The translations under genes were made by a program, and so were the position numbers. Of a DNA stretch of 64,000 nt, positions 40,086-50,346 are shown in pieces. The DNA comes from Bimastos eiseni (taxonomy: Eukaryota > Annelida > Clitellata > Crassiclitellata > Lumbricidae). The notes below the pieces were generated by a model, which saw only the letters and a list, made by a program, of their open reading frames with translations, did not search any database and was not told where the DNA came from. Location: contig OY365814.1 of assembly GCA_959347315.1 (NCBI GenBank), positions 3,940,116 through 4,004,115 of the forward strand, in the 5' to 3' direction. Every line of letters begins with the position of its first letter. Positions within the stretch are counted from its first letter, which is position 1.

Positions 40086-40442
40086 CAACTCTTTTGCTGA
40101 ACTCCTTCCGATCAATGTTGATCACAGTTGATTGGATTATTTCTGAGGCTGATCGTCGAATATCTGTAAGACCATGCAATACATCTGTCAATTTATTCGA
40201 TTCGCACAACTTCTGAATATATTCAAGTGCTGCTTGTGAATGACATCAGATGCAAACGACCACAGTCTGTCTGTGAAGTTGAGAGTTGATGATTTCTACT
40301 CCTTCAGATTTCAGCTGACTGATGAGTTCATCTGTTTTGTGTGACCTCGGCATTTCTCTATTTCGAAGATTTTCAAATTTGTCGTGAAATTGTCGAGTTG
40401 TACACTTTTCATCACGATATTGCACTTCAACTTTTGTTTCAA
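40086..40442 (-). pseudogene. FC2, TRADD-N-like exon with an in-frame TGA
   Basis: After an acceptor TTTTGATTTTTAG, phase 1, ending at a donor G|GTAGGT. It encodes VETKVEVQYRDEKCTTRQFH, then DELISQLKSEGVEIINSQLH, RQTVVVCI*CHSQAALEYIQ, SNKLTDVLHGLTDI and IIQSTVINIDRKEFSKRV. The stop TGA (40246-40248) stands where FC3 has TGG (VWIWCQTQ). The V-x-I-x-C-x-t-x-x-aLe-x-i-x-x-x-y-x-s-x-x-L...ti-x-iD layout resembles the N-terminal domain of TRADD and its relatives in invertebrate immune proteins. That assignment is tentative. The stop makes this copy truncated or dead as read. Confidence 0.5.
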
Positions 40443-40629
40443 CTAAAAATCAAAATGAATATATTTAAATGTCAATTTTGCGTCTGAATTTCATACAAAT
40501 ACGCCGTATTATATGCAATAATCGAAGGAAAGAAAGCAAAGACTGACCAGGAATACGCTGGATATGCACAATATAAATGAACAGATTTTAACATTACTTT
40601 GTACAAACAACTGATCGAGGACAATGAAG

Positions 40630-40675
40630 ATATTTTCAATCAATGAATCAATGCAATTTATAGAGCGCCTCTTCA
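40630..40675 (-). repeat. Lone CR1-like 3' terminus in FC2 intron
   Basis: On minus: GAAGAGGCGCTCTATAAATT followed by GCATTGATTCATTGATT, the family terminus plus its simple-repeat tail. Confidence 0.6.
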
Positions 40676-40800
40676 AGACAACTATTTTCTGCGGTCTAAT
40701 TTGCAGACAAGGTCTCTCAAAGTCGATGATATTGCATCGCATTATTCTGCCATGGCTATGTAGCTTTAGCGACATACGTCTTCATAGCCTTTGGCATTGT

Positions 40801-41052
40801 AATTATAATTGTAACGGAGCACTCGTATAGCGCCACTCAAGATCAGAAGCGCGTCCTACTCAGGACACATCCAAACGTAGAACAGAAAGGCCTTCAAGTG
40901 CCTCTCGAAGGAGACAGAGGAAGAGAGCATCTCCTCGTGTAGGTAAGGCAGTCATTTTCGCTGTTTCGACTATTGAAGTAAGGTTCAAATGAAGCCAAAA
41001 TCTCTCAAAACTTAGATCATCAGGTATTTGAGCCTTGTAGTGACATTTGAAA
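40801..41052 (-). repeat. LINE/SINE 3' end in FC2 intron, inverted partner of 38340-38576
   Basis: Reverse complement match of the copy at 38340-38576 along its length. It lies between the TRADD-N-like and CARD exons of FC2, inside the intron, and ends in GTTACAATTATAATT on minus. Confidence 0.8.
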
Positions 41053-41098
41053 CAAAACCAATTACTCTTGAGCTATTTTATAAAATATTACTATTAAC

Positions 41099-41386
41099 CT
41101 CCTCCGTTTTCAATTATCCTTGCTACTATCTTTTGGTTATTTCTCCGAAGACATGTTACGAAATATGAAGACTTATTCTGATCGAAGGATCTCAATAAGC
41201 ACAAAAGTTCATAGTTCTTATTTCGTCGTGAATTAAGTCGTTGAATGAAGCGACTTTGTTTATCTGTTATGCAGTCGAATGACAGCATCGAGTCGTAGAA
41301 CATGTCATTCGTTTGAATATTCTCCAAAAGATATTTTCGGTTGTTCCGAACGATTGCAGATCTTTTACTGTTTCTTTCATAGAAAT
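41099..41386 (-). CDS. FC2, CARD exon
   Basis: 288 bp between CTTGTTATTTTAG and G|GTTAAT, phase 1 in and out. It encodes SAIVRNNRKYLLENIQTNDM, YDSMLSFDCITDKQSRFIQR, NYELLCLLRSFDQN and YFVTCLRRNNQKIVARIIEN. All core CARD positions are kept, with no stop. It differs from FC1 and FC3 mainly at surface positions, as expected of a diverged paralogue rather than a recent copy. Confidence 0.8.
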
Positions 41387-47344: not shown

Positions 47345-48255
47345 TGAATCAGATCGGGTCGGGTTACGGATATTAATTTAAATTAGGCGGGTCGGGTCGA
47401 GATCCTGGTGAGTCAGTTGGGTCTGATTCCAACTCGGTCCCATTTCGACCAACCACTTTTTGCAGAGCTTAAGTTTCAACTCTGTGCCTTTCATAATGAT
47501 TCTTTTCGGTTTACATCTTCTGTGCTTGCGGTCATTGGCAAGAGACCTCAAGGCACTTGAGTCACAAAAGAACAGCAGAAGACACCCCAAGGGTATCGCA
47601 GAGCCGATTGACTTCGGAGACAAATAATCGGACGCTCTTTAAAGTCCTGCTTCTTTGACTCAGAATTTCAGAAACCACTCGCGTGACTTCATGCTATCAT
47701 TTCGGACTATACATTAATACAAGCCTGAGATTTAAATCTCTTACATAAGCCATTATCGCTTTTGCGATTAGCGGTCCGCACTTTATCCTGATGTTTTTTC
47801 AGTTGCAATCAAACAAATTGAATATGGCGAAGGACTTAGCGTAAACACTTATAGGACAACACCGGATTTTTCCTTTAACATCGAACTCGGCTCAAACTGC
47901 TGTATCGAATAATTTCTGGTGAAAACAGCGAAAGGTCAATAGATTAATTACAACCGTATAAATTAGCTGAGGATTTAACGCTTGAAATTCCGGCCTTATT
48001 CATAGAAAGAGTAAGTTTGAGCTAAAGTAGGCCTAAATAGAATAATACATTCTCACAAATCAATGTCATTGTCATAATTATGGTGGTGTGACTGTGTTGC
48101 GTTTTTATGACATTATTAACATTATCGCTGAAGGCGGGTCGAGTCGGGTCGGATTGGGTCGGGTCATACACTTCCTGGATCGGGCCGGGTAAGATATTTG
48201 GCTTTAAAAGTCTGATTGGGTCGGGTCTGGACAATTCTCGAGGTGTCGGATCGGG
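47345..48255. repeat. GGGTC-rich interspersed tracts
   Basis: 47350-47425 and 48115-48255 are built from GGGTCGGGTC, GGATTGGGTCGGG and TCGGATCGGGTC words, about 750 bp apart, with ordinary sequence between. Probably two ends of one element or two simple-repeat patches. Confidence 0.5.
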
Positions 48256-48329
48256 TCATGAAAATTGGATGCACGGACAACTCTGTGATGAATGAGTGAT
48301 TAATGATTAATGCGTAACAGCAAACTTGC

Positions 48330-48704
48330 CGACAGTTTTCTTCAACTGACAACTATCAATGTTGATCACTGTTGTTTGAATGGTTTCATAGGTAGATGGT
48401 CGAATATCGGCAAGACGAAAGAGCACATCTATTAACTGATTTGATTCATACTGCCTTTGAATATATTCAAGCGCTGCCTGTGTCTGACACCAAATCCAAA
48501 CGACCACTGTCTTTCTATCAAGTTGAGAGTTGAGGAGTTCTATGCCTTCCTTCTTCAGTTGACTGAAAAGTTCACGAGTTTGCTGTGACCACAGCTTTGT
48601 TAGGTTTCGAAGGTTCTCAATTTTGTGGTGAAGTAGCTTTGCTTCCAAGAACATTGAATTTTTACAACTTGCATCACACTTTTGAGCGTTGACCTTAACT
48701 ACAA
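48330..48704 (-). CDS. FC3, TRADD-N-like exon
   Basis: After an acceptor TTCTGCTTGTAG. It encodes VKVNAQKCDASCKNSMFLEA, ENLRNLTKLWSQQTRELFSQ, LKKEGIELLNSQLDRKTVVV, WIWCQTQAALEYIQRQYESN, QLIDVLFRLADIRPSTYE and IQTTVINIDSCQLKKTV. No stop. At the place of FC2's donor this copy has G|GCAAGT, a GC-AG type donor; if it is not used the frame ends at 48307. The N-terminal third is a likely coiled coil. The core resembles TRADD-N: a beta strand TVVVWIWC, an LEYI helix, a second helix, and a VINID strand. This is the best copy of the domain. Confidence 0.55.
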
Positions 48705-49062
48705 CTACAAGCAGAAAGAAAAATAGAATGATTTCTAAGGAGAAAATTTGGTTGCCCTATAAATACTTGCACATTTTAGCTTTTGAACTGCAATGAATTG
48801 ATTTGCATACATACATTCATACCTTCAAAAATACATAGGCCCTACATATATTTGAGGTAAACATTTTGTTGTCGGAGATTCTCAAGTTTTAAATATTTTA
48901 TTAATTCCAAGGTAAGAGATAGGACTATACAATTTTTTTATTAAGCCAAACCTTATTATAGGTCTAAGCCATTTTCGTTGCTGCAGTGATCTAGATTTGA
49001 GTGTCTTTATGAAATAAAAGCGTGTTTGCTGTGAGACATAAGATATAGTTTTTTGCTGGTAC

Positions 49063-49350
49063 CTCCACCGTTTTCGACAATCCTTGCCACTGTCTTCTGG
49101 TTGGTTCTTCGAAGACATCTGACGAAATTTGAATACTTTATCCGGTCGAAGAATCTCAGAAAGTATAAAAGTTCGACGTTCTTACTCTGCTTTGAACGTA
49201 GTCGTTGAATGAAGTGACTTTGTTCTTCTGTTAGGCAGTTCATAGATAACAGTGAATCGATGAACTCTTTATTTGGTTGAATATTTTCCAACAGATAATT
49301 TTGGTTGTTTCTAATGATCGCAGGTCTCTTCGCAGTTTCTGTATACAGAT
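49063..49350 (-). CDS. FC3, CARD exon
   Basis: 288 bp between GGTAATTTTAG and G|GTACCA, phase 1 in and out. It encodes PAIIRNNQNYLLENIQPNKE, FIDSLLSMNCLTEEQSHFIQ, NVELLYFLRFFDRI and FVRCLRRTNQKTVARIVENG. It is a complete CARD with no stop. Spliced to 48704 it continues in frame into the TRADD-N-like exon. Confidence 0.8.
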
Positions 49351-50159
49351 CTAAAATTACCAGTTACTTGAATATCACAATGCTGCTAAATAAACAAAAC
49401 TATAATGTCATCAGCAGGGAATTCATCGTTGTTTCTGTGAATTGCAATAACAGTATATCATTATTTTGTTTTTCTTGTGCATGTGAATCAAACACCACTT
49501 TGCCAGTTTTTATTTTAAAAGGGTGATTTAAAAAAATAATAATTGGGCAAATGATCAGAACTGTAAATTCGACATGAACAAATTACCTGCAATATCTCTT
49601 TCTGGACATCATATAATGTATGACTCGTCTAAGGTATGAGAGCTTAACCAGTTTTACAGACAGTGGCTCACATGACGATGCTAAGGTTGTCGCGATCTTT
49701 ATTGTAATGTGCCTGGCGTCTGTGCTTCTAACCCAAAACTGCACAAGGTACTATGAATTTGACGGCCCAATCCACTTCTAAAAAATTATTGCTTTGGATA
49801 TTTCAGGTTCCTAAAAATGTTTAAGATATTCATAAACGCAGTTTATGAATATTACAATAGTACTTTCAAATGTATTTTGGTTCATTGTCTTTTAGAATCT
49901 GCTGGGTAGTAGGCATTACGAAGATTAGCTTGAATATAATACATTGGCTTGTATTTCCTCAGGTGGTAGGCCTATGACATTATTTTAATAGTGATTCCTG
50001 ATTTTGCAAATAAACGTTTTAAAAGTGCTTGATTGAGACACCTAAATTGCAGTTAATAAAAATGGGGCAAATTAAAATTTATTTGTCAATAGTATTCGTT
50101 TTAATTCAAGTTATAACGACCTTTGTCTACACAATGAAAATATGCAACAGTAGGCCTAC

Positions 50160-50346
50160 CTTTCAGCCGATGCCAAATTCTCTTCTTAAACCTTCGTTTT
50201 GTTAGTCGTTGAAACCAACAGAATTCGACTGATGCCAATAAATTGATGACGTCTTTGTTTCTTTGGAATGATGAAGAACTCAGCACCTAATGTAGAAACG
50301 AATTCTGTAGGATGATGTCCAACAACTCCAGTGGAATTTCATTTAG
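50160..50346 (-). pseudogene. FC3, F-box-like exon with an in-frame TAG
   Basis: 187 bp between TTTTTTAG and G|GTAGGC. It encodes LNEIPLELLDIILQNSFLH, TAG (50287-50289), VLSSSSFQRNKDVINLLASV and EFCWFQRLTKRRFKKRIWHR. The stop replaces the Trp (TGG) present in FC1 (LHW) and FC2 (LYW). Start after the stop at an internal Met is not available, so the F-box part would be lost unless this exon is skipped. Skipping would change the frame. Confidence 0.55.

What the first reader, a model, noticed from the sequence alone, without database searches (positions are those of the whole stretch)
40086..50346. A gene family joining F-box-like, CARD and TRADD-N-like domains
Seen: FC2 and FC3 each have, in order on minus, an F-box-like exon, a CARD exon and an exon resembling TRADD-N. 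FC1 has the first two on plus. Splice phases (0/1, 1/1, 1/...) agree in every copy, so each set can be read as one polypeptide. Known: CARDs and TRADD-N act in death-receptor and inflammasome signalling; F-boxes dock to SKP1 in SCF ubiquitin ligases. Inference: a death-fold sensor or adaptor wired directly to ubiquitination. I know of no described family with this combination.
Basis: partly seen in the sequence, partly recalled or inferred. Interest (0 to 1): 0.88.

Follow-up and report, generated by a model that had tools for sequence, protein, structure and literature searches.

The report
Large CARD family with hypervariable propeller
The flagged exons are broken copies of a gene family with at least 69 four-exon sets in this genome, and its intact members would likely act as immune sensors, because a CARD signalling domain is followed by a predicted propeller domain with unusually variable predicted loops; the proposed F-box was not shown.

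Summary
The exons, their order and their splice phases are real. The CARD is confirmed (Pfam PF00619, FC2 and FC3). The third exon has a predicted TRADD-N-like alpha/beta fold (top Foldseek PDB hit 1f3v TRADD-N, E 0.017) but lacks TRADD-N's conserved turn motif. The F-box is not shown: it is a conserved exon of three predicted helices with an LPxELLxxIL motif. First, no copy in the window is intact: FC3 has TAG in its first exon; FC2 has TGA in its third and a truncated fourth; FC1 is cut in intron 2. Second, there is a fourth, terminal NHL-type exon. Genome-wide each exon has about 150 scored matches (capped lists); they line up as F-C-T-N on one strand in 69 distinct sets. Three sets read in full are free of stops and in phase. 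F and T exons evolve under constraint; the NHL exon has pooled dN/dS 1.13, with variation concentrated in positions predicted to be loops on one propeller face. I read this as an expanded immune-receptor repertoire: a variable propeller sensor coupled to CARD and TRADD-N-like signalling. It resembles the DED-TRADD-N-WD40 family of amphioxus (Kaur 2021) but differs in its modules. No transcript, functional or species data were available.

The parts
31954..32139 (+). FC1, F exon (helical N-terminal exon), open
32859..33143 (+). FC1, CARD exon, open
   Evidence: by similarity to FC2/FC3; FC1 itself was not scanned with Pfam
33544..37684 (.). foreign insert in FC1's intron 2, with ORFs that look Polinton-like (label from recall; no Pfam support)
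   Evidence: gap in the alignment of FC1 to intact copy L050: L050 2118 at window 33543, L050 2155 at window 37685; Pfam scans of four ORFs gave no convincing family
37685..38576 (+). rest of FC1's intron 2, ending at an inverted junction with FC2's NHL exon
38574..39029 (-). FC2, NHL-type exon (first half only; cut at the junction)
   Evidence: no NHL hit of its own in Pfam, the second half being lost
40084..40443 (-). FC2, TRADD-N-like (T) exon, with TGA at codon 66
41100..41390 (-). FC2, CARD exon, open
   Evidence: Pfam PF00619 E 2e-6
42063..42248 (-). FC2, F exon, open
48328..48708 (-). FC3, TRADD-N-like (T) exon, open; GC-type donor
   Evidence: structure model
49064..49354 (-). FC3, CARD exon, open
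   Evidence: Pfam PF00619 E 3.5e-7
50161..50346 (-). FC3, F exon, with TAG at codon 20
14658..15164 (+). isolated NHL-type exon of the same family; leaves the family reading near its end
17589..17891 (+). degraded NHL-type exon (three partial hits)

Best explanation
FC2 and FC3 are broken copies of a family with at least 69 ordered four-exon sets in this genome (helical exon, CARD exon, T exon with a predicted TRADD-N-like fold, NHL-type exon), and intact members are predicted to be intracellular immune receptors whose variable propeller face would bind a ligand and whose CARD would then recruit a death or inflammatory signalling partner. Shown: exon order, shared strand, compatible phases, reading frames free of stops in three complete sets, constraint on the F and T exons, and concentrated variation in the NHL exon. 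Predicted: the TRADD-N-like fold, and the six-bladed propeller with its D-A and B-C loops on one face (blade topology from recall). Inferred: ligand binding releases or clusters the CARD and T domains, which recruit CARD-bearing partners; the helical F exon adds a further protein-binding site, possibly but not demonstrably to ubiquitin ligase machinery. The window copies are decayed by-products of a family with fast turnover.
For: Co-linearity (lists capped, 8 kb): F to C on the same strand 3' in 114 of 150 F exons (0 opposite strand, 1 on the 5' side); C to T 104 of 149 (3 opposite; 4 same and 3 opposite on the 5' side); T to N 103 of 150 (4 opposite; 3 same-strand on the 5' side); 69 F-C-T-N sets made of distinct exons. 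Splice phases: T acceptor phase 1 in 20 of 20 loci, T donor in 19 of 20, N acceptor phase 1 in 20 of 20, and N open for at least 280 codons in 20 of 20. Three loci, L043, L047 and L050, carry all four exons without stops. CARD. NHL repeats: PF01436 above cut-off in the L047 exon translation and in 3 of 3 metagenome relatives scanned. Constraint: F exons dN/dS 0.22 over 731 usable of 780 pairs of 40 stop-free exons; T 0.46. Variation: N pooled dN/dS 1.13, dN>dS in 139 of 190 pairs against 13 of 190 for T; columns chosen as variable from 58 independent metagenome proteins have dN/dS 1.54 (bootstrap 1.11-2.24) against 0.85 in the other columns (0.60-1.21); 24 of the 30 most variable positions fall in the predicted D-A and B-C loops, which cover 71 of 291 positions, and 0 of 290 circular shifts reach the observed mean. 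Parallel: CARD/DED-TRADD-N-propeller expansions in marine animals (Kaur 2021).
Against: No transcript, protein or infection data. No start exon was found 5' of F. Only three of 69 sets were read in full, and the 20 loci with T and N were picked from the best N matches. The 190 pairs are not independent. dS is also 3.8 times higher in the variable columns (0.248 against 0.066), so recombination or mutation contributes, not selection alone. The contrast between a near-identical 5' part (0.3-1.4% different) and a 10.5% different N exon holds for L043-L047 only, and there the downstream DNA is also 7.2% different; against L050, intron 2 differs as much as N does. The loop anchors were set after the variable positions had been seen; one of the 12 loops (B-C of blade 3) is barely variable. 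The TRADD-N assignment is weak (no hit at E <= 0.001; PF20694 in 2 of 23 at E 0.11).
Confidence: 0.6

Rival explanations
1. One reading: an adaptor that ties death-fold signalling directly to SCF ubiquitin ligases through an N-terminal F-box.
For: An LPxELLxxIL motif and three predicted helices; F-box-like_2 in 1 of 42 members at E 0.005; after excising the loop between helices 1 and 2 post hoc, one of four cuts reached probability 27% with 0 of 100 shuffles as good.
Against: Uncut profile comparison: probability 2%, 12 columns, 19 of 200 shuffles as good; the other three cuts gave 3%, 7% and 3%; the profile against PDB sequences found no F-box; Foldseek found no match, though the model is of low confidence (pLDDT 69, pTM 0.34).
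Confidence: 0.15
2. An RNA- or nucleic-acid-sensing family: the NHL propeller would bind RNA, as in Brat or TRIM71 (recalled), and the CARD would signal its presence.
For: NHL repeats; variation on one predicted face.
Against: The variable positions showed no common basic signature that I tested; extreme variation fits diverse protein or glycan ligands as well. Not tested directly.
Confidence: 0.15
3. Self/non-self recognition between individuals (allorecognition) and not pathogen sensing, as with hypervariable WD40 receptors in fungi (recalled; papers seen only as listings).
For: Hypervariable germline repertoire in clusters.
Against: No polymorphism data.
Confidence: 0.1
4. Mostly relics: a burst of duplications now decaying, with no current function.
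For: The three window copies are all broken.
Against: Of the listed matches only 9 of 150 T exons and 7 of 150 F exons contain stops; F dN/dS 0.22 (stop-free exons only); 20 of 20 N exons looked at are open.
Confidence: 0.1

Closest known systems
Amphioxus (Branchiostoma) NCOA6-clade DED-TRADD-N-WD40 expansion, 13-129 proteins (Kaur et al. 2021, PMC8195603, section 10)
   Same: Lineage-specific expansion; death-fold domain, then a TRADD-N-type domain, then a C-terminal beta-propeller of high sequence variability
   Different: Here CARD and not DED, NHL and not WD40, an extra helical exon at the N-terminal side, and a T domain without the TRADD-N turn motif
DEDD2-clade TRADD-N expansions (18-23 copies in echinoderms; Kaur 2021, section 11)
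   Same: Constant death-fold plus TRADD-N part with variable flanks; fusions to ubiquitin-system domains exist
   Different: Fold-level resemblance only; 'F-box' has 0 occurrences in that paper and 'NHL' has 0
Human TRADD (1f3v, 1f2h)
   Same: Predicted order of strands and helices of the T exon; 1f3v_A is the top Foldseek PDB hit
NHL-repeat TRIM proteins (TRIM2/3/71, TRIM56; recalled)
   Same: NHL propeller as C-terminal ligand-binding part
   Different: No RING, B-box or coiled coil in the exons seen; CARD present

Membership tests
CARD (PF00619) | Profile match above the curated cut-off | tested here: met
   FC3 30.6 bits, FC2 28.1 bits, cut-off 23.9
TRADD-N | Two-layer alpha+beta RRM-like fold | tested here: inconclusive
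TRADD-N | Conserved uS motif in the beta2-beta3 turn (Kaur 2021) | tested here: not met
   The consensus around the turn is LNSQLDRQTVVV; the turn is D-R-K/Q, and the nearest serine lies inside strand 2
TRADD-N | Sequence profile match (PF20694) | tested here: inconclusive
   2 of 23 members, best E 0.11; unrelated families scored better (Sigma70_r1_1 11 members, 0.0013; Anoctamin_N 6 members, 0.0015)
F-box | Profile match to an F-box family | tested here: inconclusive
   F-box-like_2 in 1 of 42 members at E 0.005, others none; hhalign probability 2%, 3-28% after post hoc cuts
F-box | Three-helix F-box fold | tested here: inconclusive
   Three helices predicted at pLDDT 69, pTM 0.34; no Foldseek match in PDB or viral library
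F-box | Binding to SKP1 | not testable with these tools
   needs pull-down or complex prediction
NHL-repeat propeller | NHL repeats above cut-off (PF01436) | tested here: met
   L047 exon 28.6 bits against 20, and P0002, P0003, P0024; the truncated FC2 exon has none
NHL-repeat propeller | Six-bladed propeller fold | not tested

The most novel reading that the evidence does not exclude
A germline-encoded repertoire of over a hundred propeller receptors: conserved signalling exons (helical domain, CARD, TRADD-N-like) are spliced to a hypervariable NHL exon whose two top-face loops per blade form a diversified binding surface, in the way that leucine-rich repeats do in other immune repertoires, with recombination reshuffling the sensor exon between clustered copies.
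Probability: 0.5. Interest if true: 0.85.

Novelty: new variant of a known kind. Interest (0 to 1): 0.7.

Why it matters
If true, this is a large, previously undescribed (in the searches) immune-receptor repertoire that uses an NHL propeller as its variable sensor and a CARD as its output. It would show that the death-fold plus TRADD-N plus propeller plan has been assembled more than once from different modules, and the loop positions give directly testable specificity determinants.

Tried and rejected
F-box: rejected as unproven after Pfam, PDB-sequence profile, profile-profile and fold comparisons. Protein search with spliced FC3: none of 665 candidates. With spliced FC2 plus the NHL exon: 59 hits of 7897 candidates; profiles of the exons match them in the NHL part, with no F or C match and one weak T match. 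T exon alone: 21 hits of 81, all short single-exon ORFs. T profile against PDB sequences: only a chance-level hit. No conserved coding exon was seen 5' of F. A TRADD-like_N family search of the genome could not be run, nor the F-box-like_2 one. Idea that the FC2 N exon ends in a SINE: replaced by the junction with FC1's intron 2. Papers: Kaur 2021 seen as sections 8, 9, 10, 11 and passages; PMC13228809 as passages; PMC8913654 searched for five terms, no occurrence; others as listings only.
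Full report
What is in the window. Three copies of an exon set were found at the coordinates given: FC1 on plus and FC2 and FC3 on minus. Ungapped repeats between FC2 and FC3 have exon length, and the borders carry AG acceptors and GT donors (GC in FC3's T exon) in compatible phases. dN/dS between copies is 0.24-0.33. None of the copies is intact: TAG in FC3's F exon, TGA in FC2's T exon, and FC1's intron 2 interrupted by an insert of about 4.1 kb and then fused in reverse to the middle of FC2's fourth exon.

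A fourth exon. Downstream of FC2's T exon lies an NHL-type exon on the same strand (38574-39029) with an acceptor in the right phase. Relatives in the protein collection (59 hits) show that the full exon is about 300-340 codons long and ends the protein. Pfam finds NHL repeats in four of four full-length examples scanned, not in the truncated window copy.

Genome-wide. The window lies in a 660 Mb genome of 118 contigs, unnamed. Single-exon protein queries gave T 150 of 324 candidates, N 150 of 586, CARD 156 matches with 150 of 425 candidates scored and F 150 of 213, all capped. I used 149 of the 156 CARD matches. Within 8 kb the next exon lies on the same strand 3' for 114 of 150 F, 104 of 149 CARD and 103 of 150 T exons, with 0, 3 and 4 on the opposite strand and 1, 4 and 3 on the same strand 5'. 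This gives 85 F-C-T and 69 F-C-T-N sets, each made of distinct exons. FC2 is one of the 69; FC3 is F-C-T only. In 20 loci picked from the best N matches, T and N are present in 20, CARD in 9 and F in 3 of the fetched stretches, which mostly end short of F. Three loci, L043, L047 and L050, carry all four exons without stops. Phase-1 acceptors were seen for T and N in 20 of 20 loci and the T donor in 19 of 20; for CARD my simple rule found acceptor and donor in 6 of 9. No start exon was identified.

Where the variation is. Among 20 loci the T exon has pooled dN/dS 0.46 and the N exon 1.13. Between L043 and L047, F, CARD, T and introns differ by 0.3-1.4% but N by 10.5% (and downstream DNA by 7.2%); against L050 this contrast is absent, intron 2 differing by about 11%. 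Columns that vary in 58 independent metagenome relatives have dN/dS 1.54 in this genome (1.11-2.24), the others 0.85; dS is raised there too, so recombination or mutation is part of it. With blades anchored on NHL strand motifs, mean entropy is 1.24 in D-A loops, 1.35 in B-C loops, 0.21 in A-B loops and 0.35 elsewhere. D-A and B-C loops lie on the same face of a propeller (recalled). The anchors were placed after seeing the variable positions.

How it would work. I infer a sensor-adaptor receptor: the variable propeller face binds a ligand, and the CARD and T domains then assemble signalling partners. Kaur 2021 proposes the same logic for TRADD-N proteins with propellers, and describes DED-TRADD-N-WD40 expansions in amphioxus. 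The combination CARD, TRADD-N-like and NHL, with the helical exon, was not found in seven literature searches of an open-access library, which is not the whole literature.

Verdict. Real family, misread in one domain and incomplete as reported; the copies in the window are broken; the family as a whole is a new variant of the known plan of death-fold plus TRADD-N plus repeat sensor. Host: an animal by its gene content (inference); species not established.

Noticed in passing
33544-37684: Insert in FC1's intron 2 with ORFs that by recall look like Polinton/adintovirus capsid, protease, integrase and a RING finger; no convincing Pfam match for the four ORFs scanned. Described only.
   Followed up: partly
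38574-38576: Junction between FC1's intron 2 (+) and FC2's NHL exon (-) with about 3 bp shared: an inversion-type breakpoint that removed parts of both genes.
   Followed up: yes
39450-40019 and 51793-52337: Fragments of a retrotransposon-like sequence repeated at 83-88% identity on both sides of FC2 and FC3, with reverse-transcriptase-like ORFs (by eye).
   Followed up: no
L034 (genome C13:24809642-24810001): A T-exon match inside an open frame of 1817 codons; not explained.
   Followed up: no
L006, L009, L031, L035, L024: GCAAGT at the T-exon donor position in place of GT, as in FC3: a GC-AG intron subclass within the family.
   Followed up: partly
42960-43095: Tandem repeat rich in GGGGAGATGTCCGG.
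   Followed up: no
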